From Bacillota bacterium (GTDB lineage Bacteria; Bacillota; Clostridia; Caldicoprobacterales; DTU083), in contig JAKPIB010000039.1 in the NCBI GenBank assembly GCA_029549985.1, positions 1-38,780 of the forward strand: a stretch of DNA of 38,780 bases. The letters are read 5' to 3'. The notes beneath the pieces are model-generated. The model ran no database searches. It was not told the origin of the DNA and was given only the letters and a program-made list of their open reading frames with translations. The position numbers were made by a program, and so were the translations under genes. Positions 9,769 to 21,834 of the stretch are shown one piece after another; positions within the stretch are counted from its first letter, which is position 1; every line of letters starts with the position of its first letter.

Positions 9769-11364
9769 ATGCGAAAAATCATCCGGCTGGTTGCTACAGC
9801 CCTTATTTTTTTTGTGCTTATTGGATGCGTATCATGTAATCGGACCGGCAGTACAGATAATGGTCAGAACGCAACCCATACCCCGGGCTTGGGCCCGACA
9901 GCAGATCCAGTTGACACACCTGTCCCGGACCCGTCAGATGGTCCATCGACAGGCCCGTCAAATAGTCCGACCGCGGATCCGCATAATGGCACACCAGACC
10001 CGACTGATGATCCCGGACCTGGTCCAACGTCAGGGCCGACAGATACTACAGGGCAGGAACCAACAGTCGTTCCGACGGGTGCTCCGGGCGGAAGCAAAAT
10101 CGATGACCCATCCCTGACATATGACAAGGTCGAACTGAAGGTTTCCGGCTATCTGAACACTGTTACCTCTTCTCAGATCAAGCTGCCTGATTCATTCAAG
10201 GGTGTCACGGTATACGGATATTCGATGAAGCTGGGCGACCGGTTCATACCTGCAGAAATGAGTATCAAAAACAATGTACTATACATATACCCTGCAGAGT
10301 ATCTGAAGGATGGAAGCTACTATTCAATAAGGATCTTTTCAGAAGAAAAGCAATATGAGCTGAAGCTAAGGGCTTATGATGTGAAAGCTATAGATTTTTC
10401 CAAGGATTCCTTGTTCCTGATACCGGCAAAGCCTGAAAAAGGGTTCAACTATCCGTATTATCTAAGAGTCCCGCGAGGTGCGGACAAGAGCGCATATAAA
10501 CGGCTGATCGTAGAGCCAAACAACTCGGGACGGGTCAGCGATGACCTGGAGCTGCACAGGGAGCTGGCCAAAAGGGATGCCCAAGGCGCATGCCTGGGCG
10601 CATCAACGGCAGAGGTGCTTGCCATGCCCTTTATCATGCCTGTGTTCCCAAGGCCTCTGACTGAGTTCTGGGACAACTACTACCACACTCTGTCGAGAGA
10701 TGTTATGGAAAAGACATCGGGCGACGGGAAAAGAGTAGACCTGCAGCTCATTGCGATGATAAAGGATGCACAGGAGCTTCTGGCAGCGCATGGCCTGGTC
10801 CTTGAAAAGAAAGTATTCATGACCGGTTTCTCGGCTTCAGGCCAGTTTGTCAACAGGTTCACCGTATTGCATCCTGAGTGGGTCAAGGCTGTCTTCCATG
10901 GCGGCTTCACCATGTATCCCACTGACAGGTTGGGCGGCAATACACTGTATTTCCCCTTGGGCACAGCAGATATAAAGGAGCTGACAGGGAAGCAGTTCAA
11001 CCTTGCAGAGTATAAAAAGGTTTCACAGTTTGTATTTACTGGCGATCAGGACAAGAATGACAAGATCAATGAGACAGCAGAGGACTACAATGCATATGAT
11101 GCCAGGGTGATGCATGATCTGTACCAAACCGAGGATTGCATGGTCATATGGCAGAAAAAAGAGCAGTATATGAACAGCCTGGGCTTTGGCGGCAATATCC
11201 AGTTCCATGTGTATGTGGGGATAGGACATGGTATACCTCCTGCGTCGTTGCATGATGCCGTGAGATTTTTCAAGGCCAACCATGGAGCAAAAATAACGAA
11301 AATCGATGCCATTGAAGATGCATGGTACTTTGACAGCAACGAATACTGGAATTCCGGTAGATAA
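9769..11364 (+). CDS. Secreted alpha/beta-hydrolase lipoprotein with Pro/Thr/Asp-rich linker
   Basis: The signal peptide ends in a lipobox (LIGC, Cys20). A linker of about 85 residues follows (24-110), rich in Pro, Thr, Asp, Gly and Ser, which should hold the catalytic part away from the membrane. Residues about 115-215 form a beta-rich domain shared with the next gene, then an alpha/beta-hydrolase domain follows. The nucleophile elbow is GFSASG with Ser355. The second small residue is Ser rather than the Gly of the classic GxSxG. A late GIGHG gives the probable catalytic histidine. This elbow is usual in related clostridial hydrolases and likely means an esterase or peptidase-like activity at the cell surface. 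A paralogue follows immediately. The substrate is not evident. Confidence 0.82.
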   Translation: MRKIIRLVATALIFFVLIGCVSCNRTGSTDNGQNATHTPGLGPTADPVDTPVPDPSDGPSTGPSNSPTADPHNGTPDPTDDPGPGPTSGPTDTTGQEPTVVPTGAPGGSKIDDPSLTYDKVELKVSGYLNTVTSSQIKLPDSFKGVTVYGYSMKLGDRFIPAEMSIKNNVLYIYPAEYLKDGSYYSIRIFSEEKQYELKLRAYDVKAIDFSKDSLFLIPAKPEKGFNYPYYLRVPRGADKSAYKRLIVEPNNSGRVSDDLELHRELAKRDAQGACLGASTAEVLAMPFIMPVFPRPLTEFWDNYYHTLSRDVMEKTSGDGKRVDLQLIAMIKDAQELLAAHGLVLEKKVFMTGFSASGQFVNRFTVLHPEWVKAVFHGGFTMYPTDRLGGNTLYFPLGTADIKELTGKQFNLAEYKKVSQFVFTGDQDKNDKINETAEDYNAYDARVMHDLYQTEDCMVIWQKKEQYMNSLGFGGNIQFHVYVGIGHGIPPASLHDAVRFFKANHGAKITKIDAIEDAWYFDSNEYWNSGR

Positions 11365-11417
11365 GCAAATGCATCATGGCTCAGGATATTTCAGGTATGA
11401 AACAGGAGGCAGATAAT

Positions 11418-12740
11418 ATGAAAATAAGGACCAGGATATGGTTAGCTGTTGTTGCAGCTGCTATCATACTGATGACTATTTCTGTTTTCGCATACTCTAC
11501 TTCAGCCTTTGAGACTATAAAGGCAAATGGATCTCTATACTCAACCAAGGAATCTGTCCTGACCCTGCCGGCGACGATAGCAGAAGCTGATGTTGCAGGC
11601 ATATCCCTGGAGGATGCATCCGGCAGTATGCAGGCATCGGAATTCCGCTTCGAGGGCAGCAGGCTTTATATAAAGCCTTCAAGGGATTTGATCGGCGGCA
11701 AGGTCTATACGATAAGAATATTCACAGGCAGCAGGAAGAGGTATCAGATAAAAGCAACGGCAAAGGATGATATCGTTATCAGCAACAGTAAGAACAGTGT
11801 GATCAAGATATCCGCAAAGCCCGACAAAGGATACAACTATCCCTATTACCTGCTGATACCTAAGGGCACCTTTGAGGACACATCAAAGAAATACCTGGTC
11901 GTTGAGCCCAACAACAGCGGATATCCATCGGATTCACTATTGTTCCATGAGATCGATGTGAGGATCTGCATGCGGGACTATGGCACCTGGTCCGGCGGTG
12001 CGGGCGGATATCAGGTCGCCACAGAACTAAAGACACCGCTGCTGATGCCCGTGTTCCCTCGCCCAACATCCGAGGACGGCGCCGGGATCTACACCCATGC
12101 CCTGGACAGAGAGGCTATGACGATAAAGGGCAAGCCCTATGAGAGAGTCGATCAGCAGCTTATCGCCATGATAGATGATGCCAGAGGGCTGCTGGCAGAG
12201 TATGGTATAGCGCTTGAGCAAAAGGTGTTTATGGTAGGCTTCTCGGCTTCCGGGGATTTCGTAAACAGGTTTACAGTGCTGTATCCGGAGCTGGTGAAAG
12301 CAATTGCATCCAGTACATCGACGATATTCCCTGCAGCTTCGTATGAAGGCGTTACCCTCAAGTATCCGCTGGGTATTGCGGATATCAAAAATTTCACGGG
12401 CAAACCCTTCAATGACGCAGAGTTTCGGAAGGTAGCAAAATATATATATACCGGGGACCAGGACAGGAATGACGGTGTAACAGATGAATGGGATAAGAAC
12501 GGGAAAGAATATGTGGCTGCGATGCGCAAGCTGTTCGGAGCAGAGCTTTTCCCGGACAAGTGGTATAAAAAGATAGATATAATCAATGACCTGGGATATG
12601 GTGAAAGCTATCAGTTCCATATATATAAAGGAATAGGGCATTCTATCAGCTCAGGCATGTTTGATGATATAGTCAAATTCTTTAAAGCAAATATGGGAAG
12701 TGAAATAAGAAAGATAACCCCAAAGGAATATGCAAACTAA
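11418..12740 (+). CDS. Secreted alpha/beta hydrolase, tandem paralogue
   Basis: Clear paralogue of the preceding gene without its low-complexity linker. Shared blocks include KPDKGYNYPYYLLIPKG, VVEPNNSGYPSD, LLMPVFPRP, GFSASGDFVNRFTVLYPE and the late GIGHS. The elbow serine is at about residue 276. An N-terminal hydrophobic segment (about 6-28) with no lipobox cysteine acts as a signal peptide or anchor. AGGAGG stands eight bases before the ATG at 11418, which is preferred over 11376. It lies 53 bases after its paralogue, so a duplication within one operon is likely. Two copies, one lipid-anchored with a stalk and one not, suggest different surface locations or substrates. Confidence 0.82.
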   Translation: MKIRTRIWLAVVAAAIILMTISVFAYSTSAFETIKANGSLYSTKESVLTLPATIAEADVAGISLEDASGSMQASEFRFEGSRLYIKPSRDLIGGKVYTIRIFTGSRKRYQIKATAKDDIVISNSKNSVIKISAKPDKGYNYPYYLLIPKGTFEDTSKKYLVVEPNNSGYPSDSLLFHEIDVRICMRDYGTWSGGAGGYQVATELKTPLLMPVFPRPTSEDGAGIYTHALDREAMTIKGKPYERVDQQLIAMIDDARGLLAEYGIALEQKVFMVGFSASGDFVNRFTVLYPELVKAIASSTSTIFPAASYEGVTLKYPLGIADIKNFTGKPFNDAEFRKVAKYIYTGDQDRNDGVTDEWDKNGKEYVAAMRKLFGAELFPDKWYKKIDIINDLGYGESYQFHIYKGIGHSISSGMFDDIVKFFKANMGSEIRKITPKEYAN

Positions 12741-15046: not shown

Positions 15047-16678
15047 TCAGAGATGGTTTATGTCCTTTCCCAGCTCCTTGAGCATATTGACATACAAAAT
15101 CAGCTCTTCCCGGGAGGTCACATTGAGCTTGGCGTAGATCCGCTTGCTGTGGGTCTTGATCGTGTTGATGCTGAGGTAGAGGATATCAGCGATCTCCTTG
15201 GCGTTCAAGCCCTTGGCGTAGAGGTTGAACACATTGCGCTCCGCAGGGGACAGCTTGTTGACGTTCTCAAGGAATTCGTCCAGCATTACGATTGAGCTGT
15301 CCTGGACTCCTCCGCTTCTGGCGAGCTCTTTTCGACGTGACATGAGATATGCTATAAGGTCATCTATTTCAATGATCCTTGTTTTTGGTACAGAATCAAA
15401 GTCATCGGACTTTATTGCGTCTATCCCCACCGAAATGGGCTGGATAAACTTACGGCTCAAAGCATAGGAAACGACCATGCCGGCTATGACCAGCATTACC
15501 AGTCCGAAATACAGGGTGGTATTGAGCCTGGAGATATGGCCCACCATGTCCTCCCTGGGGACCAGCACGGCAGTTGCCCACTTATCTGCGGCGAAGACCG
15601 AATTGTCGGGATATAGGCGGATTTCCTTGTGCTTGCCCAGATAGATCTTGTCATCCTGCTGCTCATATACCCACAGGCTGCCGCTCATATCGGCAAGCTC
15701 CAGCCTCGGGCTGCCTGAGGAGTAGGTCCTGGCTGAGTATCCACCTGCAAAGAGGGAATTGCTCATGTCGAGATACTTGCCATGATAAGGGGACAAGGTG
15801 CAGAAGATCCGCCTGAAGATGCTCGTATCAGGCATATATGAAAGCTTGAACAGCATAGAGCTCACTTCAAAGCCGCATACGCCGAAAACATCTCCGTTGG
15901 AGTCTACAAGCGGGACAGAGATCAATATGACCTCTTCACTGGTACCTGGCAGGAGGAAGGCAGGGGTCCAGTAATATAGCTGTGAAAGTGACTTATCCCT
16001 GTGTTCAAGGGCTGCCTGAAAGGGGATATGATAGTAGGCGGCATCGCTGATATCGAATTCCATCTTCCATTGGGTATGAAGGGCGAATCCCCTTTCCCTG
16101 CTGACCGAGGGATAACCCCGCAGGGTCACGATAGTCGGCGACGAGGAGCTTATGATATTAGGCTCCATATTTTTTATGTAAAGTCCTGCCTTTGAACTTT
16201 GCGCAAAATCCAGCAGGGGGTTTATGGTTGCGTCCAGGATGAAGAATACCCCGCTGCATTTTGATGTCAGAAGGTAAAAGTATGCATTATCGAACTGGGA
16301 ATCCGTTATCCTCTCCAAATATTCAGGATGAGCGGCAAGCTCAGCCGGAGCGATCGACAGCTTGTTCAGCTCATGCTCTATACCCCTGGACAGAGATCTT
16401 GAAAACTCCACCGCTTGAGCCGAAAGCTGGCCAAGATTTTTGGACATACCCTGGTAGACATGATTCAGCTCTTTGGTCAACAAGGTTTCGCTTTCCAACA
16501 GGCCGGCAGTAAACTTGCCGGTCGCCAGGAGGACCGCAATGACCCCGAGTATCATGGTCAAGACCAGGACAACAAGGAAGAGAAATAGTTTAATGCGCAT
16601 TGACATGTTCAATGCGCTTAATTTCTTAGAGGCGTATTCAAATTTGCTTACAATTGCCTGGCGGCTGGGGCTTTTCAC
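15047..16678 (-). CDS. Membrane-anchored LuxR-type transcription factor with extracellular sensor domain
   Basis: 543 residues with an unusual layout. A short basic cytoplasmic head is followed by membrane helix 1 (about 30-52). A large extracellular domain (about 53-388) has Cache-like features, including the strand-turn ISVPLVDSNGDVFGVCGFEVS. Membrane helix 2 spans about 389-409, and a HAMP-like linker with QPISVGIDAIKSDDF follows. The C-terminal LuxR/GerE helix-turn-helix spans 476-543 (LSPAERNVFNLYAKGLNAKEIADILYLS and NTIKTHSKRIYAKL). No kinase, receiver or cyclase lies between, so signal and DNA binding are in one chain tied to the membrane. It begins 21 bases after the solute-binding protein gene and should be co-transcribed with it. 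The DNA target is inferred. Confidence 0.85.
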   Translation of the reverse strand: MKSPSRQAIVSKFEYASKKLSALNMSMRIKLFLFLVVLVLTMILGVIAVLLATGKFTAGLLESETLLTKELNHVYQGMSKNLGQLSAQAVEFSRSLSRGIEHELNKLSIAPAELAAHPEYLERITDSQFDNAYFYLLTSKCSGVFFILDATINPLLDFAQSSKAGLYIKNMEPNIISSSSPTIVTLRGYPSVSRERGFALHTQWKMEFDISDAAYYHIPFQAALEHRDKSLSQLYYWTPAFLLPGTSEEVILISVPLVDSNGDVFGVCGFEVSSMLFKLSYMPDTSIFRRIFCTLSPYHGKYLDMSNSLFAGGYSARTYSSGSPRLELADMSGSLWVYEQQDDKIYLGKHKEIRLYPDNSVFAADKWATAVLVPREDMVGHISRLNTTLYFGLVMLVIAGMVVSYALSRKFIQPISVGIDAIKSDDFDSVPKTRIIEIDDLIAYLMSRRKELARSGGVQDSSIVMLDEFLENVNKLSPAERNVFNLYAKGLNAKEIADILYLSINTIKTHSKRIYAKLNVTSREELILYVNMLKELGKDINHL

Positions 16679-16699
16679 AACCGGCCAATCCTCCTCGAG

Positions 16700-18082
16700 T
16701 CAGTTATTGGGCAACTGACTGACAAAATCTTTATACGCAGCCTCGGAAACGGTTTTCAACGCCGTTTCGGCATCAGTGCTTTCAAGCAGGGTGATATACT
16801 CATCCCGGTAATCATTTATTGCTTTAATGAACAGGTTTTCATATTTTTCCTGCAGCTCGTCCAGGCTGTCAAATAACGGAGGGATATAAAAGTCATACTC
16901 ATCATGCATGGTCTTGCATGTCTTGAGCAGCTTTTTGACTCGGTCATTCTCTATGTTTTTGATCTCTGTGTTCATCAGTTCACCAAAGGCTTCATTAGTA
17001 ACGGGCAGATAGCCTGTGGATGATACGAACCGCAGATTGTTTTCAGGCCTGGTGAACCATTTGAGGAAGGTCACTGCTGCATCCTCCCGCCTTTTATCCG
17101 ATTTGATGACACACATGCCGCCTCCGCGCTGGATGGCGACCTTCCTGCCGCTCTCAAAGACCGGATAAGGCAGGATCGCAAGCTCGACGGGCTCAGATGT
17201 GTTGTCCTCATAGGTCACGGTAGGTGAGAAAAACAGTACTCCGGCCGTAGAACCGGTCGAGCATACAATGTCCCCTGTCTTGGCCAGGTCGGTGGCATAT
17301 CCGTCAAAGGCAGCAAAGCGACCTGATATCCCGGCTTTGAAGTACAAATCCCAGATTCTTCTATAAGCCGGTGACTCCAGGCTCAACTTGTCCTGATCGA
17401 ACATATCGACCCCGAGCTGGTTTGTGCCGATCATTGCGAAATTGAAGAGGGAGTCGGACATATAAAACATTTTGCCGTCATTTTCGATATCAGGCGTAAT
17501 GTCGTCTGTCCATTGGTAGTATGCTTCAGCAGCCCTGGCAAGGCCTTCAAAGGTGGCAAGCTCATCGAGGGTGATGCCTGTAGCCATTGCGAACCTGTTG
17601 AAAATCGTTGTGTTCACAAAGAGGACCTCTGTCGATTTGGCAGTCGGGAATACATAAAGCTGACCGTCAAGGATCCTGCCCTCATCGACAAACTGGGGAA
17701 TATAGGCTGACAGCTCATCAGCTGTGAATTTTTCACTCATGTTTACGAGCAAGCCCTTTTTAGCGAGGATAAGCGCGGTTTTTGGGTATGCCGTGGTTAT
17801 ATCTGGCATGTCAGGTGCGCCGGGGTCGCCTGCAGCAGCCATTGTCAGCTTATCATGGAGAGTCTGGCTGCCGGATATGGAAGTCACGCTGATGATTATG
17901 CCTTCCTTTGCCCCTATCGTTGCATTGAACTCATCGATCATCGCATCCATCGTGTTTTTCATCTGGCCCCCGTAGTTATGCCATAGGGTGAGTGTGACCG
18001 GGTCCCTGGAGCCGCTTAGGAGGCTGCATGCTGACAACAGCATCATGACGATCGTAATAAAAATAAAAAGTATACGCTTCAT
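16700..18082 (-). CDS. Extracellular solute-binding lipoprotein, family 1
   Basis: 460 residues. The signal peptide has lipobox LSAC, with lipidated Cys19. The mature protein begins with VTLTLWHNYGG, the usual first strand of sugar-type (MalE/UgpB-like) binding proteins. It carries DITTAYP, LYVFPTAKSTEVLFVNTTIF, AIQRGGGMCVIK and AAVTFLKWFTRPENNLRFVSSTGYLPV, all standard for cluster-type family 1 proteins. No permease or ATPase genes are adjacent. The next gene is a membrane-bound transcription factor. This suggests that it delivers ligand to the sensor, or serves a transporter encoded elsewhere. It has its own upstream region with a promoter and an inverted repeat. Confidence 0.88.
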   Translation of the reverse strand: MKRILFIFITIVMMLLSACSLLSGSRDPVTLTLWHNYGGQMKNTMDAMIDEFNATIGAKEGIIISVTSISGSQTLHDKLTMAAAGDPGAPDMPDITTAYPKTALILAKKGLLVNMSEKFTADELSAYIPQFVDEGRILDGQLYVFPTAKSTEVLFVNTTIFNRFAMATGITLDELATFEGLARAAEAYYQWTDDITPDIENDGKMFYMSDSLFNFAMIGTNQLGVDMFDQDKLSLESPAYRRIWDLYFKAGISGRFAAFDGYATDLAKTGDIVCSTGSTAGVLFFSPTVTYEDNTSEPVELAILPYPVFESGRKVAIQRGGGMCVIKSDKRREDAAVTFLKWFTRPENNLRFVSSTGYLPVTNEAFGELMNTEIKNIENDRVKKLLKTCKTMHDEYDFYIPPLFDSLDELQEKYENLFIKAINDYRDEYITLLESTDAETALKTVSEAAYKDFVSQLPNN

Positions 18083-18163
18083 CCTCAGGCATACCTGCTT
18101 TCATATATATGGTAAAGGGCTATAAATCAGTAAATGTACCTATAAACTAAGCATACTAACATA

Positions 18164-18191
18164 ATTATATCATAGTAATAATAAACAACAA
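18164..18191 (-). promoter_or_regulatory. Promoter for the solute-binding protein/LuxR unit
   Basis: On the - strand, TTGTTG (18186-18191), a 16-bp spacer, then TATAAT (18164-18169). A TG dinucleotide one base upstream makes it an extended -10. Confidence 0.65.
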
Positions 18192-18221
18192 AACATATAA
18201 ATTCGATCATTGCAAGAAAAA

Positions 18222-18236
18222 TCATACCTGGTATGA
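18222..18236. promoter_or_regulatory. Inverted repeat, candidate operator
   Basis: A perfect 7+1+7 inverted repeat (TCATACC-T-GGTATGA) lies upstream of the -35 element of the solute-binding protein promoter. It is centred roughly 70 bases before its expected start point, a usual place for a LuxR-family activator. It also lies upstream of the divergent gene at 18359. Regulator identity is inferred. Confidence 0.45.
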
Positions 18237-18271
18237 CCTGCTTATTTCGGGCGCAATCACCTGCAGGGTGA

Positions 18272-18300
18272 TTACATGTGAGTAATTATAAATATATAAT
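18272..18300 (+). promoter_or_regulatory. Possible promoter for the DUF4870-like gene
   Basis: TTACAT (18272-18277), a 17-bp spacer and TATAAT (18295-18300), 58 bases before the start codon. The -35 is weak. Confidence 0.5.
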
Positions 18301-18358
18301 AAACTCGGCATACATTTATAAAACCCTATCAAACTCAAAATTCAAAGGAGGAAAACCA

Positions 18359-18706
18359 ATGACAGAACCAAACGTAAACACCCAGACACCCCAGGTCGAG
18401 ACCTTTGACCCCCAGGACATTGAAAAGAACAAGGTTATGGCCGCTCTAGCCTATATTTTGTTCTTCCTTCCGCTAATAGTATGCCCGGACTCCAAGTTCG
18501 GCCGTTTCCACGCAAACCAGGGGCTACTGCTGCTGATAGTAGCATTTGCCGGTTCTTTCATACTTACTATTACAATTGTGGGATTGTTCCTTGTCCCCTT
18601 CTACTCCATTGCGATTTTCGTATTCGCAATAATCGGGTTCATAAACGGGCTTAACGGCAAAGCAAAAGAATTGCCCCTCTTTGGGAAGTTCAGGATCATC
18701 AAGTAG
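18359..18706 (+). CDS. Small DUF4870-like membrane protein
   Basis: 115 residues from the ATG at 18359, preceded by AAAGGAGG. A polar N-terminal tail (about 30 residues) leads into KNKVMAALAYILFFLPLIV, the conserved FGRFHANQGLLLLI, two more membrane helices and a GFINGLNGKAKELPLFGKF end. HANQGLLL is the hallmark of small tetra-helix-type membrane proteins of the DUF4870/Tic20-like group, function unknown. It heads a run of envelope and zinc-ribbon genes on the + strand. Confidence 0.75.
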   Translation: MTEPNVNTQTPQVETFDPQDIEKNKVMAALAYILFFLPLIVCPDSKFGRFHANQGLLLLIVAFAGSFILTITIVGLFLVPFYSIAIFVFAIIGFINGLNGKAKELPLFGKFRIIK

Positions 18707-18750
18707 TCGACAAGACTACTTAAGTTTTATTAAATTTTGAGGTGAATCGT

Positions 18751-19635
18751 ATGAAAAAAGCTTTTGCAGCATTGGCTCTGCTGATATGCCTGCTGCTTGT
18801 ATTGACATCCTGCGGTCTGCTTCGCAATACGATCGAAGAGAATATCCCCGGAGGCAGGCAATCAGATGATCCAAACGATACAGATGAGCCGAACGATACA
18901 CAGGGTCCTAATACGGAGCAGCCTGGCACATCACAGGACCCCGGGACGAAAGAGTATAGACTGTCATCCTTCGCAGACCTCTGGACTGACCTTTACGATG
19001 AGAACTCATCTGTGCTGAGCAAGTCACAGGAGTTCTTGCTGGAGGCAGCCTACCCCGCCTTGTCGTTTGTTACAGCAGGCCAATACGACATGCTCAACCT
19101 GTTCAACCAGGAAGGGCGTTTCGAGGGGAAGCTGCTACTGGCAGGCTGGGACGGCTTCGTTGAGAAGCATGGCCCCAATTTTACATTCGGATATGAAGGC
19201 ATTCGCGAGGATGATGGATGGGCTCCCAGCGATAAAGCCGGTGACAGGCTTGTTGAGCAAGGCAACTGTCAGCTCGAGGACGGTCACTATTTCGTCGAGC
19301 ACTACACAGAACAGGATAGTGTTAAAATCAGCCGTACCAATACTGATTTTCAGGTAATGAGCGACGGATCCATAGTATGCATCTACCAGTCCGGAAACCT
19401 CTTTGATGCGAGAGGTGACGAGAGACCGTCTTCTACCGTTGTGTACGTCAGAAACGGCCGGGGGCAGTTTCATATCGTTGTGGCCAAATCCGAAAAGGGC
19501 ACTGATTATGACAATATCCTGATCTCGGATCACGGTGATATCATGAAGGCGGATGCCATAAGGATTTTCGAGCAAGCAGGCTATACCATCAACTATTCGG
19601 GCAGCATTGTAGGCGATACATTTGTGCTGGATTGA
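18751..19635 (+). CDS. Lipoprotein of unknown function
   Basis: 294 residues. The signal peptide has lipobox LTSC (Cys21), followed by an Asp/Asn/Thr/Pro-rich linker of about 35 residues (DDPNDTDEPNDTQGPN). A mixed alpha/beta domain then has no motif that I recognise. GAGGTG is seven bases before the ATG at 18751; the GTG at 18742 overlaps that site. The linker style recalls the stalk of the hydrolase lipoprotein at 9769. A second, smaller lipoprotein gene follows after 49 bases, and a terminator ends the group. Confidence 0.75.
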   Translation: MKKAFAALALLICLLLVLTSCGLLRNTIEENIPGGRQSDDPNDTDEPNDTQGPNTEQPGTSQDPGTKEYRLSSFADLWTDLYDENSSVLSKSQEFLLEAAYPALSFVTAGQYDMLNLFNQEGRFEGKLLLAGWDGFVEKHGPNFTFGYEGIREDDGWAPSDKAGDRLVEQGNCQLEDGHYFVEHYTEQDSVKISRTNTDFQVMSDGSIVCIYQSGNLFDARGDERPSSTVVYVRNGRGQFHIVVAKSEKGTDYDNILISDHGDIMKADAIRIFEQAGYTINYSGSIVGDTFVLD

Positions 19636-19684: not shown

Positions 19685-20167
19685 GTGTACAAAAGAATCA
19701 TAGCTGCGCTTCTGGCTGTATTTATGCTGGGTGCTCTGACCTCCTGCAATATCCAGAAGAAGATCACCGACGGGATTTTGAAAGGCATCTTCGGTAAGGA
19801 TATCAAAGTCGACGATGACGGCATTACCATCATCGATGAAGAGGGCAAAGTAACCATAGGCGGAGGCAAATGGCCCACAGGCCTTGCCGCAGATCATCTG
19901 CCAAAATTCAGCCATGGCGAGATAATCACTGCCATTAATACTGATGAAGGCCTGGCGGTGGCAGCGGCAAATGTCAAAGAGGAGCATTACAGGGAATATG
20001 TCCAGCAAGTAAAGCAGAAAGGATTTGTAGAGGAACCCGAGGAGCATGAGGTTCAGGGATCCACTCTCAGTTATGTCGCCTACAAGGGCAAAGCGGTGGT
20101 CGGCGTAGTGTATTCGATTCCCAATGAGACTATCCAGATCACATTGGATTTGAAGAATGAAGACTGA
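19685..20167 (+). CDS. Small lipoprotein, DUF6591-like
   Basis: 160 residues from a GTG start with GGAGAGG upstream. Lipobox LTSC gives lipidated Cys21. The mature part has a repeated acidic beta pattern (KVDDDGITIIDEEGKVTIGGGKWP), followed by an alpha/beta segment with EHYREYVQQVKQKGF. I recognise this arrangement from small lipoproteins common in Clostridia, whose function is not known. An intrinsic terminator lies 25 bases after the stop. Confidence 0.75.
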   Translation: MYKRIIAALLAVFMLGALTSCNIQKKITDGILKGIFGKDIKVDDDGITIIDEEGKVTIGGGKWPTGLAADHLPKFSHGEIITAINTDEGLAVAAANVKEEHYREYVQQVKQKGFVEEPEEHEVQGSTLSYVAYKGKAVVGVVYSIPNETIQITLDLKNED

Positions 20168-20220: not shown

Positions 20221-20280
20221 CCATGCTCGTGACCTCAAATATGTCTGCCTTCCGGCAGCACAGCCTAGCGGGGGATGAAA

Positions 20281-20616
20281 ATGGCCTTTTACAAAGAGAC
20301 ATGCATCAGGTGTGGAGCGCTTATAAACCCGGATGTGCGCAGCTGTCCCAAATGCGGCAGCAGGATCCCGTTTGGAGACAGGTGCTTTACCTGCATGCGG
20401 GAGATAAGCAGGGATGACAGGGTATGCTCCGGCTGCGGCCGCCAGCTCCATGTCGTTTGCCCCGTATGCGGGGAGACCACCTTTATGCAGGACCGTTGCG
20501 AGAAATGCAATGCAGATCTGATGATAATATGCCCAAACAAGCGGTGCGGCGCGTTTCAGTTTTATGATACTGAAAAGTGCACTGCATGCGGTAAGAAGAT
20601 CAAGAAAAGGAAGTAG
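20281..20616 (+). CDS. Multi-zinc-ribbon protein
   Basis: 111 residues, nearly all zinc-binding knuckles. Eight CxxC-type pairs (one of them CxxxxC) would hold about four zinc ions: CIRC, CPKC, CFTC, CSGC, CPVC, CEKC, CPNKRC and CTAC. The ATG at 20281 is chosen since AGCGGGGG lies seven bases ahead; 20275 is nearly on top of that site. It is the first of three adjacent zinc-ribbon genes. Such proteins often act as protein- or nucleic-acid-binding adaptors, but no function can be named. Confidence 0.75.
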   Translation: MAFYKETCIRCGALINPDVRSCPKCGSRIPFGDRCFTCMREISRDDRVCSGCGRQLHVVCPVCGETTFMQDRCEKCNADLMIICPNKRCGAFQFYDTEKCTACGKKIKKRK

Positions 20617-20648
20617 TTTTCCCATATTCTGTATTGGAGGGTTTACCC

Positions 20649-21314
20649 ATGCTGAAAGCTTTTACCAGGAATTATGAGGATAACAGTACGGAAGCAGGAT
20701 TTCAGTTTACATTTTATTGTGACCTATGCCATGACGGGTTCAAATCATCCTTTATCGAGTCTGAGACCTATAAGAAAGGCAAGCTGATGCGGGGTATCGC
20801 AGGCGGAGCGGCGGCACTCGGACATTTGCTGGGCGGGAAGCTCCATAACCTGTCATACACCGTATCCCACGGTTCAAATGTATTGTCAGAGCGGTTTCAT
20901 GGTATGAGCCCCGAATGGCAGAAGGAGCATGAAAAAGCCTTTGAGATGGCCCAGAACGAGGCCCAGCGCCATTTCAACCGGTGCCACAACTGCCGGCAGT
21001 GGGTATGCGATGCTGACTTCAACGAGGATGTAGGGCTTTGCGTCGAATGTGCACCCAGGCAGAATGTCCGGATAGCCAAGGCCAGGTCGGACCGGATCAT
21101 GGATGAGATAGTCGAGCAGGCAGAGGCCGGCAGCTTTTTCACAGGGAAGATCGAGAGCAAGACCCTTATCTGTCCTGTATGCAACAAGCCGTCTGGCGAG
21201 GGCAAGTTCTGTAATAACTGCGGAGCGAACCTGTCCATGAACATATGCCCGGGATGCGGCGCGCAGGTGGCAAAGGGAGTCAAGTTCTGCGGTGAATGCG
21301 GAACAAGGCTATAG
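20649..21314 (+). CDS. Zinc-ribbon protein with C-terminal double zinc ribbon
   Basis: 221 residues from the ATG at 20649, with GGAGG eight bases ahead. The N-terminal part has an FTFYCDLCHDGF knuckle and a Gly/Ala-rich stretch (GIAGGAAALGHLLGGKL). A second motif has CHNC and CVEC around residues 110-135. The C-terminal double zinc ribbon (CPVCNKP, CNNCGA, CPGCGA, CGECGTRL) matches the DZR pattern. It lies between two other zinc-ribbon genes at short spacing. A conserved clostridial protein of unknown role. Confidence 0.78.
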   Translation: MLKAFTRNYEDNSTEAGFQFTFYCDLCHDGFKSSFIESETYKKGKLMRGIAGGAAALGHLLGGKLHNLSYTVSHGSNVLSERFHGMSPEWQKEHEKAFEMAQNEAQRHFNRCHNCRQWVCDADFNEDVGLCVECAPRQNVRIAKARSDRIMDEIVEQAEAGSFFTGKIESKTLICPVCNKPSGEGKFCNNCGANLSMNICPGCGAQVAKGVKFCGECGTRL

Positions 21315-21348
21315 GCTTTATCAAATAAAGTTATGAGAGGTGGATCAT

Positions 21349-21834
21349 ATGGCAGATGACATTTTCAAAGGCCTTAGCGGACTTTCGGGGCTTGTGAAGG
21401 GTTTCAGCTCATTTATGCCCCAGGACGATCCGGCTACCAAGATAATCAACGCAACTACTGAGCTCAATGATCTGCAAAAGCGGGAGACAGAGCTTTATGC
21501 TGAGATCGGCAGGAAGGTGTTCAGCAGCATAAGCAGCAGGCCTGAATTCGCTGATATAGTCGATGAGCTTGAAAGCAACAGGCGCAGGCAGCAGCAGGTC
21601 AGGGCCAGCCTTGAAGCAGCCCAGAAGGAAAAGGAAGAAAAACAGAGGCTGGAGGAGGTAAAACGCGAGGAGCGTACCTGCCCTGAATGTGGCTACTTGA
21701 ATGAGGAAGGCATGAAGTTCTGCCAGGAATGCGGGGCAAGGCTGGGAGTGGTGAAGAGCATGTGCCAGAAATGCGGCACCAAGAACCCGCCCAACACCAG
21801 ATTCTGCGGTGAATGCGGCAATAAGCTTATGTAG
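21349..21834 (+). CDS. Coiled-coil protein with C-terminal double zinc ribbon
   Basis: 161 residues from the ATG at 21349 (GAGGTGG upstream). An N-terminal amphipathic part is followed by a long charged helix (about 40-110: NDLQKRETELYAEIGRKVF, then RRRQQQVRASLEAAQKEKEEKQRLEEVKREE) that should form a coiled coil. A double zinc ribbon closes the protein (CPECGY, CQECGA, CQKCGT, CGECGNKL). It looks like a homo-oligomeric scaffold that presents zinc ribbons. It is the last of three zinc-ribbon genes; 21835-22058 behind it shows no gene or convincing signal. Confidence 0.78.
   Translation: MADDIFKGLSGLSGLVKGFSSFMPQDDPATKIINATTELNDLQKRETELYAEIGRKVFSSISSRPEFADIVDELESNRRRQQQVRASLEAAQKEKEEKQRLEEVKREERTCPECGYLNEEGMKFCQECGARLGVVKSMCQKCGTKNPPNTRFCGECGNKLM

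What the first reader, a model, noticed from the sequence alone, without database searches (positions are those of the whole stretch)
15047..18236. Solute-binding lipoprotein plus membrane LuxR factor: possible one-component envelope sensor
A family 1 extracellular binding protein and a two-helix membrane protein with a large extracellular Cache-like region, a HAMP-like linker and a C-terminal LuxR DNA-binding domain form a two-gene unit with no permease, kinase or receiver. A perfect TCATACC-T-GGTATGA inverted repeat lies about 70 bases before the promoter, which suits autoregulation. Seen directly: gene order, domains and repeat. Inferred: the binding protein passes ligand to the sensor, which then acts on DNA from the membrane, as CadC/ToxR do with another DNA-binding fold.
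Basis: partly seen in the sequence, partly recalled or inferred. Interest (0 to 1): 0.75.

Follow-up and report, generated by a model that had tools for sequence, protein, structure and literature searches.

The report
Binding-protein-linked membrane transcription factor
In many anaerobic Bacillota, a solute-binding protein is paired not with a transporter but with a membrane-spanning sensor that carries its own DNA-binding domain, which very probably switches on a neighbouring set of envelope genes through a conserved operator; binding proteins are known to drive kinases, chemoreceptors and c-di-GMP enzymes, so a transcription factor as their direct partner would be a new arrangement.

Summary
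The two-gene unit is real: a family-1-type solute-binding protein (SBP, 16700-18082 -) followed by a two-TM protein (15047-16678 -) with a dCache ectodomain (AlphaFold/VIA Z~18) and a LuxR-type HTH. The pair is conserved in 35/35 assessable relatives and in 25/26 from 392 class genomes. No ABC permease was found in 44 neighbourhoods. That operator lies 20-21 bp before the -10 of a divergent DUF4870 (Tic20-like)/lipoprotein/zinc-ribbon operon in 23/23 loci (2/24 towards the SBP), so it is an activator site at about -42 for that operon, not an autoregulatory site. It follows the target operon when genes rearrange, and perfect copies occur in 15 of 31 LuxR-bearing genomes against 1 of 361 others. 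The sensor co-evolves with the SBP (r=0.95) more than with its own HTH. Sister SBPs pair with dCache-GGDEF, GGDEF-EAL or histidine-kinase receptors: a signalling SBP family with exchangeable outputs. Ligand unknown; SBP-sensor contact and DNA binding are inferred.

The parts
16700..18082 (-). Solute-binding lipoprotein (SBP_bac_8/SBP_bac_1), 460 aa, lipobox LSAC; first gene of the sensor operon
   Evidence: AF2 model pLDDT 90, best Foldseek matches sugar/dinucleotide/UgpB-type ABC binding proteins
15047..16678 (-). Membrane LuxR-type regulator, 543 aa: TM1 (within aa 20-61), dCache ectodomain (54-384), TM2 (about 385-412), HAMP-like linker, GerE/LuxR HTH (475-529); starts 21 bp after the SBP stop codon
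18255..18273 (.). Conserved operator AATCACCTGCAGGGTGATT (consensus AATCACCC-N3-GGGTGATT); only perfect match to AATCACC-N5-GGTGATT in the 2.1-Mb genome; centre about -43 to the predicted start of the DUF4870 operon
18220..18238 (.).
18295..18300 (+). Predicted -10 hexamer TATAAT of the divergent operon, 21 bp after the operator
18359..18706 (+). DUF4870 (Tic20/HOTT-like) small membrane protein, predicted first target gene (AAGGAGG at 18346-18352, ATG at 18359)
   Evidence: the 118-aa orthologue L036:5946-6302 scores above the DUF4870 gathering cut-off
18742..19635 (+). 297-aa lipoprotein-like protein of unknown family, target operon; homologue in L061 has its own perfect operator
19685..20167 (+). 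DUF6591-like lipoprotein, target operon
20275..20616 (+). Double zinc-ribbon protein, target operon
20634..21314 (+). Zinc-ribbon protein, target operon
21340..21834 (+). Zinc-ribbon protein, target operon

Best explanation
The pair is a signalling module. The membrane-tethered SBP captures an extracellular ligand and docks on the dCache domain of the partner. The signal crosses TM2 and a HAMP-like linker and changes the C-terminal LuxR-type HTH, which, still anchored in the membrane, binds the palindrome AATCACCC-N3-GGGTGATT as a dimer (often with extra half-sites about 25 and 37 bp upstream). Bound at about -42, overlapping the -35 region, it activates the divergent DUF4870/lipoprotein/zinc-ribbon operon (class II activation, as LuxR does from its lux box). 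Shown by computation: gene pairing, domains and fold, absence of permeases, operator conservation and promoter phasing, operator-regulator co-occurrence, sensor-SBP co-evolution. Inferred: SBP-sensor contact, ligand dependence, direct DNA binding, direction of the switch.
For: Pairing: SBP directly upstream in 35/35 relatives whose contig reaches it and in 25/26 in a 392-genome class sample. No BPD_transp_1 permease in 44 neighbourhoods, with all 30 own-genome permeases recovered as control, nor beside sister SBPs. Ectodomain is dCache, VIA Z~18. Sensor-SBP distance correlation 0.95, against 0.56 for HTH-SBP; partial correlation given HTH 0.93 and given DUF4870 0.91; length-matched random sensor subsets give at least 0.84. 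Operator with <=2 mismatches in 24/29 intergenic regions, against 0.013 expected after shuffling. -10 hexamer 20-21 bp after it in 23/23 towards DUF4870 (a looser 19-24 bp window gives 7.2 after shuffling) and in 2/24 towards the SBP. Operator follows the target genes in L057, L061, L177, L178 and in G028, where the DUF4870-DUF6591 operon and a trypsin-like protease gene, both unlinked to LuxR, each carry a perfect copy. Perfect operator in 15/31 LuxR genomes against 1/361 others, p=1e-17.
Against: Genus g16 (G020, G028) has the LuxR gene without an adjacent SBP and no SBP homologue was found there, and G305 has lost the SBP; so the regulator may work alone in some lineages or those copies may be decaying (the G020 copy is frameshifted). 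Co-evolution of neighbouring genes is partly shared descent. The operator is less clear or absent in the most divergent pairs (L069, L071, L173, L182). No expression, binding or ligand data exist.
Confidence: 0.72

Rival explanations
1. The dCache domain senses its own ligand; the SBP is an ordinary transport SBP for an unlinked ABC permease, merely co-expressed.
For: The own genome has 36 BPD_transp_1 matches that could be partners; dCache domains usually bind small ligands directly; G028 and G305 keep the regulator without the SBP.
Against: Pairing conserved across many Bacillota families without any permease; sensor-SBP co-evolution; all but one of the sister SBPs whose neighbourhood was read also sit beside a dCache-type receptor; some SBPs appear to replace the lipobox by an uncleaved N-terminal helix (L050, L059).
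Confidence: 0.13
2. The regulator mainly autoregulates its own operon through the palindrome near 18222-18236.
For: The repeat is perfect and lies in the shared intergenic region; an effect on both promoters cannot be excluded.
Against: That exact repeat is kept only in the nearest relative. The conserved operator is phased to the divergent promoter in 23/23 loci and to the SBP promoter in 2/24, and it moves with the target operon.
Confidence: 0.05
3. The conserved operator belongs to another DNA-binding protein, and the membrane LuxR protein has other targets.
For: No binding data; one operator precedes a MalT-like gene and others lie near a second one (L102, L103), which could be alternative binders.
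Against: Near-exclusive co-occurrence of operator and this LuxR family (15/31 against 1/361; the one exception lies inside a permease gene); lux-box-like size, symmetry and -42 position suit a LuxR-type activator.
Confidence: 0.07
4. The HTH is released from the membrane by regulated proteolysis instead of acting while anchored.
For: A flexible, low-confidence linker (aa 456-462) precedes the HTH.
Against: No protease partner in the unit and no cleavage motif noticed; the linker carries conserved HAMP-like positions (P414, E437, L441 invariant), which suits conformational signalling.
Confidence: 0.1

Closest known systems
NspS-MbaA and relatives (SBP plus GGDEF-EAL receptor; PMC9993111, PMC8967002)
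   Same: An SBP acts through a membrane receptor; the sister clade found here has this layout with dCache-type GGDEF-EAL receptors.
   Different: Here the output is a LuxR-type DNA-binding domain; no second messenger.
XylFII-LytS (SBP plus sensor kinase; cited in PMC9602780)
   Same: An SBP that stimulates a membrane sensor.
   Different: No kinase or response regulator; the sensor itself carries the DNA-binding domain.
Transmembrane transcription regulators such as CadC/ToxR (PMC10269533)
   Same: TM segment plus DNA-binding domain in one chain.
   Different: HTH is C-terminal LuxR/GerE type, not a ToxR-like winged helix; two TMs flank a dCache domain; an SBP partner.
10-12-TM LuxR regulators of Eggerthella (DadR, HcdR, CadR; PMC9734109)
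   Same: Membrane-embedded LuxR-type activators.
   Different: Those have 10-12 TM helices; this has two TMs and a large dCache ectodomain plus an SBP.
VtrA/VtrC and ToxR/ToxS co-component systems (PMC9214523)
   Same: Membrane transcription factor with a separately encoded partner in the same operon that forms the sensor.
   Different: Partner is an SBP fold, not lipocalin-like; Bacillota; LuxR HTH.
LuxR-lux box class II activation
   Same: About 20-bp inverted repeat centred at about -42, overlapping the -35 region (lux box position from general knowledge).
   Different: Different sequence; activator is membrane-bound; extra upstream half-sites.

Membership tests
Transmembrane transcription regulators (TTR) | At least one TM region and a DNA-binding domain in one protein (definition in PMC10269533) | tested here: met
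CadC/ToxR family | N-terminal Trans_reg_C winged helix, single TM | tested here: not met
   HTH is GerE at the C-terminus, two TMs
LuxR/GerE (NarL/FixJ) HTH proteins | GerE domain above the gathering score | tested here: met
   56.3 bits against 23.5 cut-off
10-12-TM LuxR family (PMC9734109) | 10-12 N-terminal TM helices | tested here: not met
   two TM segments
dCache receptors | Double-Cache (PDC) extracellular fold between two TMs | tested here: met
   Foldseek and VIA matches to dCache domains, Z 15-18 over aa 54-384; no Pfam Cache hit
HAMP-linked receptors | HAMP domain after TM2 | tested here: inconclusive
   No Pfam HAMP hit; HAMP-like invariant P414/E437/L441
ABC importer SBPs | SBP fold | tested here: met
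ABC importer SBPs | Encoded with a cognate permease | tested here: not met
   none in 44 neighbourhoods nor beside sister-clade SBPs
SBP-stimulated receptors (NspS-MbaA, XylFII-LytS) | Ligand-loaded SBP binds the receptor ectodomain | not testable with these tools
   Only indirect: pairing and co-evolution
NspS-MbaA type | GGDEF-EAL output | tested here: not met
   Output is GerE; met in the sister clade, e.g. L167, L184
Co-component systems (VtrA/VtrC) | Obligate heterodimeric sensor formed by two operon-encoded proteins | not testable with these tools
   Operon pairing met; complex not tested

The most novel reading that the evidence does not exclude
A dedicated signalling SBP family of Bacillota, never transport-linked in the loci examined, drives dCache receptors with interchangeable outputs (LuxR HTH, GGDEF, GGDEF-EAL, hybrid kinase); the LuxR branch is a new output type for SBP signalling, an SBP-controlled membrane transcription factor that activates a Tic20-like/lipoprotein/zinc-ribbon/protease envelope regulon through a defined operator.
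Probability: 0.65. Interest if true: 0.72.

Novelty: new variant of a known kind. Interest (0 to 1): 0.63.

Why it matters
A recent survey lists the receptor types known to be stimulated by SBPs as chemoreceptors, sensor kinases, c-di-GMP enzymes and Ser/Thr kinases (PMC9602780); a transcription factor as direct partner is not among them. The module is compact (two genes, one operator, one target promoter), so ligand-SBP-sensor-DNA signalling across a membrane could be rebuilt in a laboratory host and its outputs compared with the GGDEF/EAL and kinase sister systems. It also gives a first regulatory handle on DUF4870/HOTT proteins, Tic20 relatives described as uncharacterised outside magnetosomes (PMC11628618).

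Tried and rejected
Pfam Cache and HAMP hits: none; the fold had to be shown by structure. Sequence search of the SBP against the PDB gave no match at E<=1e-10; at E<=1 the best are a sugar ABC binding protein (1.6e-9) and dinucleotide-binding and UgpB-type proteins, so the ligand stays open. The only perfect operator in a genome without the LuxR gene (G241) lies inside a permease gene and is read as chance. L170 (25% identical SBP) was left aside as too distant. The single kinase near a relative (L044) is on the opposite strand and not conserved. Literature searches for an SBP with a membrane LuxR regulator found none; the library is open-access only. Absence of a fold family from the VIA list was not used as evidence.

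Full report
WHAT IS THERE. The window holds a minus-strand pair: an SBP gene (16700-18082) and, 21 bp after its stop codon, a 543-aa regulator gene (15047-16678). Pfam gives SBP_bac_8 (E=1.8e-32) and SBP_bac_1 for the first and GerE (LuxR HTH, E=2.5e-15, aa 475-529) for the second, with no Cache or HAMP hit. Hydropathy shows two TM segments in nearly all full-length homologues. An AlphaFold2 model from 31 homologues (pLDDT 83) matches dCache ligand-binding domains over aa 54-384 (Foldseek; VIA-align Z 15-18, rmsd 3.2-6.1 A, 207-272 residues aligned). The SBP model (pLDDT 90) matches sugar-, dinucleotide- and UgpB-type ABC binding proteins at about 20% identity or less.

PAIRING. Of 37 related loci in named genomes, plus the window, 35 hold the SBP directly upstream; the other three are cut by the contig end. 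In 392 class genomes the regulator (E<=1e-30) is in 31; of 26 copies not at a contig end, 24 show the adjacent SBP in the search tables and a 25th shows it on reading the contig (L200). The exception, G305, has lost the SBP. Two genomes of genus g16 also carry the regulator without SBP, one frameshifted. A permease profile that recovers all 30 own-genome permeases finds none in 44 neighbourhoods, while it does find permeases in an unrelated locus (L201).

CO-EVOLUTION. Over 23 loci, sensor-domain distances correlate with SBP distances at r=0.95, while the HTH of the same chain correlates with the SBP at 0.56; the partial correlation given HTH is 0.93 and given the neighbouring DUF4870 is 0.91. 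Length-matched random sensor subsets stay at or above 0.84. Shared descent contributes, but does not explain why the sensor follows the SBP more than its own DNA-binding domain.

OPERATOR. It occurs with <=2 mismatches in 24 of 29 upstream regions, against 0.013 expected after shuffling. In the window's own 2.1-Mb genome it is the only perfect match to AATCACC-N5-GGTGATT; the other hits have two mismatches.

DIRECTION OF CONTROL. A -10-like hexamer starts 20 or 21 bp after the operator, towards the divergent DUF4870 gene, in 23 of 23 loci. Counting a looser 19-24 bp window, shuffled sequence gives 7.2 on average and 15 at most. Towards the SBP the 20-21 bp hexamer occurs in 2 of 24. The operator is therefore centred at about -42 of the divergent operon, typical of class II activators and of lux boxes (general knowledge). 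Where target genes have moved, the operator has moved with them: before zinc-ribbon genes in L057, L177 and L178, before the 280-aa lipoprotein in L061, and in G028 before an unlinked DUF4870-DUF6591 operon and a trypsin-like protease gene (same family as). Secondary perfect copies in other genomes often precede lipoprotein, secreted-protein or trypsin-like/zinc-ribbon protease genes.

SPECIFICITY. Perfect operators occur in 16 of 392 genomes, 15 of them carrying the regulator (15/31 against 1/361, Fisher p=1e-17); the sixteenth lies inside a permease gene. In a sample of 99 relatives that partly overlaps it, all five genomes with a perfect operator carry the regulator.

SISTER SYSTEMS. More distant SBPs (35-43% identity) sit beside dCache-type receptors with other outputs: GGDEF-EAL (for example L167, L183, L184, L187), GGDEF (L186, L193, L194, L198) and hybrid kinases (L185, L189), with one orphan (L197). 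In an SBP tree the LuxR-paired SBPs form one group in 92% of bootstrap trees, separate from the others. This is a signalling SBP family with exchangeable receptor outputs.

MECHANISM AND LIMITS. Most likely the ligand-loaded SBP engages the dCache domain and the membrane-anchored HTH activates the divergent operon. Shown computationally: architecture, pairing, operator and its phasing, co-occurrence, co-evolution. Inferred: ligand, SBP-sensor contact, direct DNA binding, sign of the response. The target genes (DUF4870/HOTT, described as Tic20 relatives in PMC11628618; lipoproteins; zinc-ribbon proteins; in relatives a trypsin-like protease) point to an envelope function.

NOVELTY. SBP-stimulated receptors are known as chemoreceptors, kinases, c-di-GMP enzymes and Ser/Thr kinases (PMC9602780); membrane transcription regulators are widespread (PMC10269533), and multi-TM LuxR activators exist in Eggerthella (PMC9734109). 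The combination of an SBP with a dCache-LuxR membrane transcription factor was not found in the literature held here. It is a new variant of a known kind.

Noticed in passing
L183, L184, L187, L188, L190-L192, L195, L196, L167 (GGDEF-EAL); L186, L193, L194, L198 (GGDEF); L185, L189 (hybrid kinase): Sister SBPs of the same family paired with dCache-type receptors of other outputs, without an adjacent permease.
   Followed up: partly
L042, L053, L056, L059, L064, L066 upstream of the operator: Two extra half-sites at about -23 and -34 point the same way, whereas in L040, L045, L047, L050, L068 the pair faces each other as a second palindrome; the orientation of one half-site flips between lineages at nearly the same position.
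   Followed up: partly
L050:6656-7966, L059:705-2078: SBP lacks the lipobox cysteine and seems anchored by an uncleaved N-terminal helix, so tethering may matter more than lipidation.
   Followed up: no
L105 (G103:C112): A second, paralogous SBP-LuxR pair in one genome, with a one-mismatch operator just upstream of the SBP.
   Followed up: no
L110:3046-4866, L178:11914-13620, L180:1096-2826: Trypsin-like proteases (zinc ribbon at the C-terminus in L110 and L178) with the operator upstream: probable regulon members.
   Followed up: partly
L102, L103 (Petroclostridium sp. X23 genome): Operator copies precede or lie near large MalT-like (STAND/TPR) genes, suggesting a regulatory cascade or a second binder.
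   Followed up: no
L173, L182: Distant SBP-LuxR pairs (25-29% identity) beside TPM-domain and zinc-ribbon genes without this operator: a likely branch with another DNA site.
   Followed up: no
window 9769-11364 and 11376-12740: Two tandem paralogous extracytoplasmic proteins (44-46% cross-identity), without an above-cut-off Pfam match.
   Followed up: no
L061:6466-7871: SBP gene split by a frameshift at about codon 156 while its regulator is intact.
   Followed up: no
L197 (G385): Family SBP with no receptor or permease beside it: an orphan.
   Followed up: no
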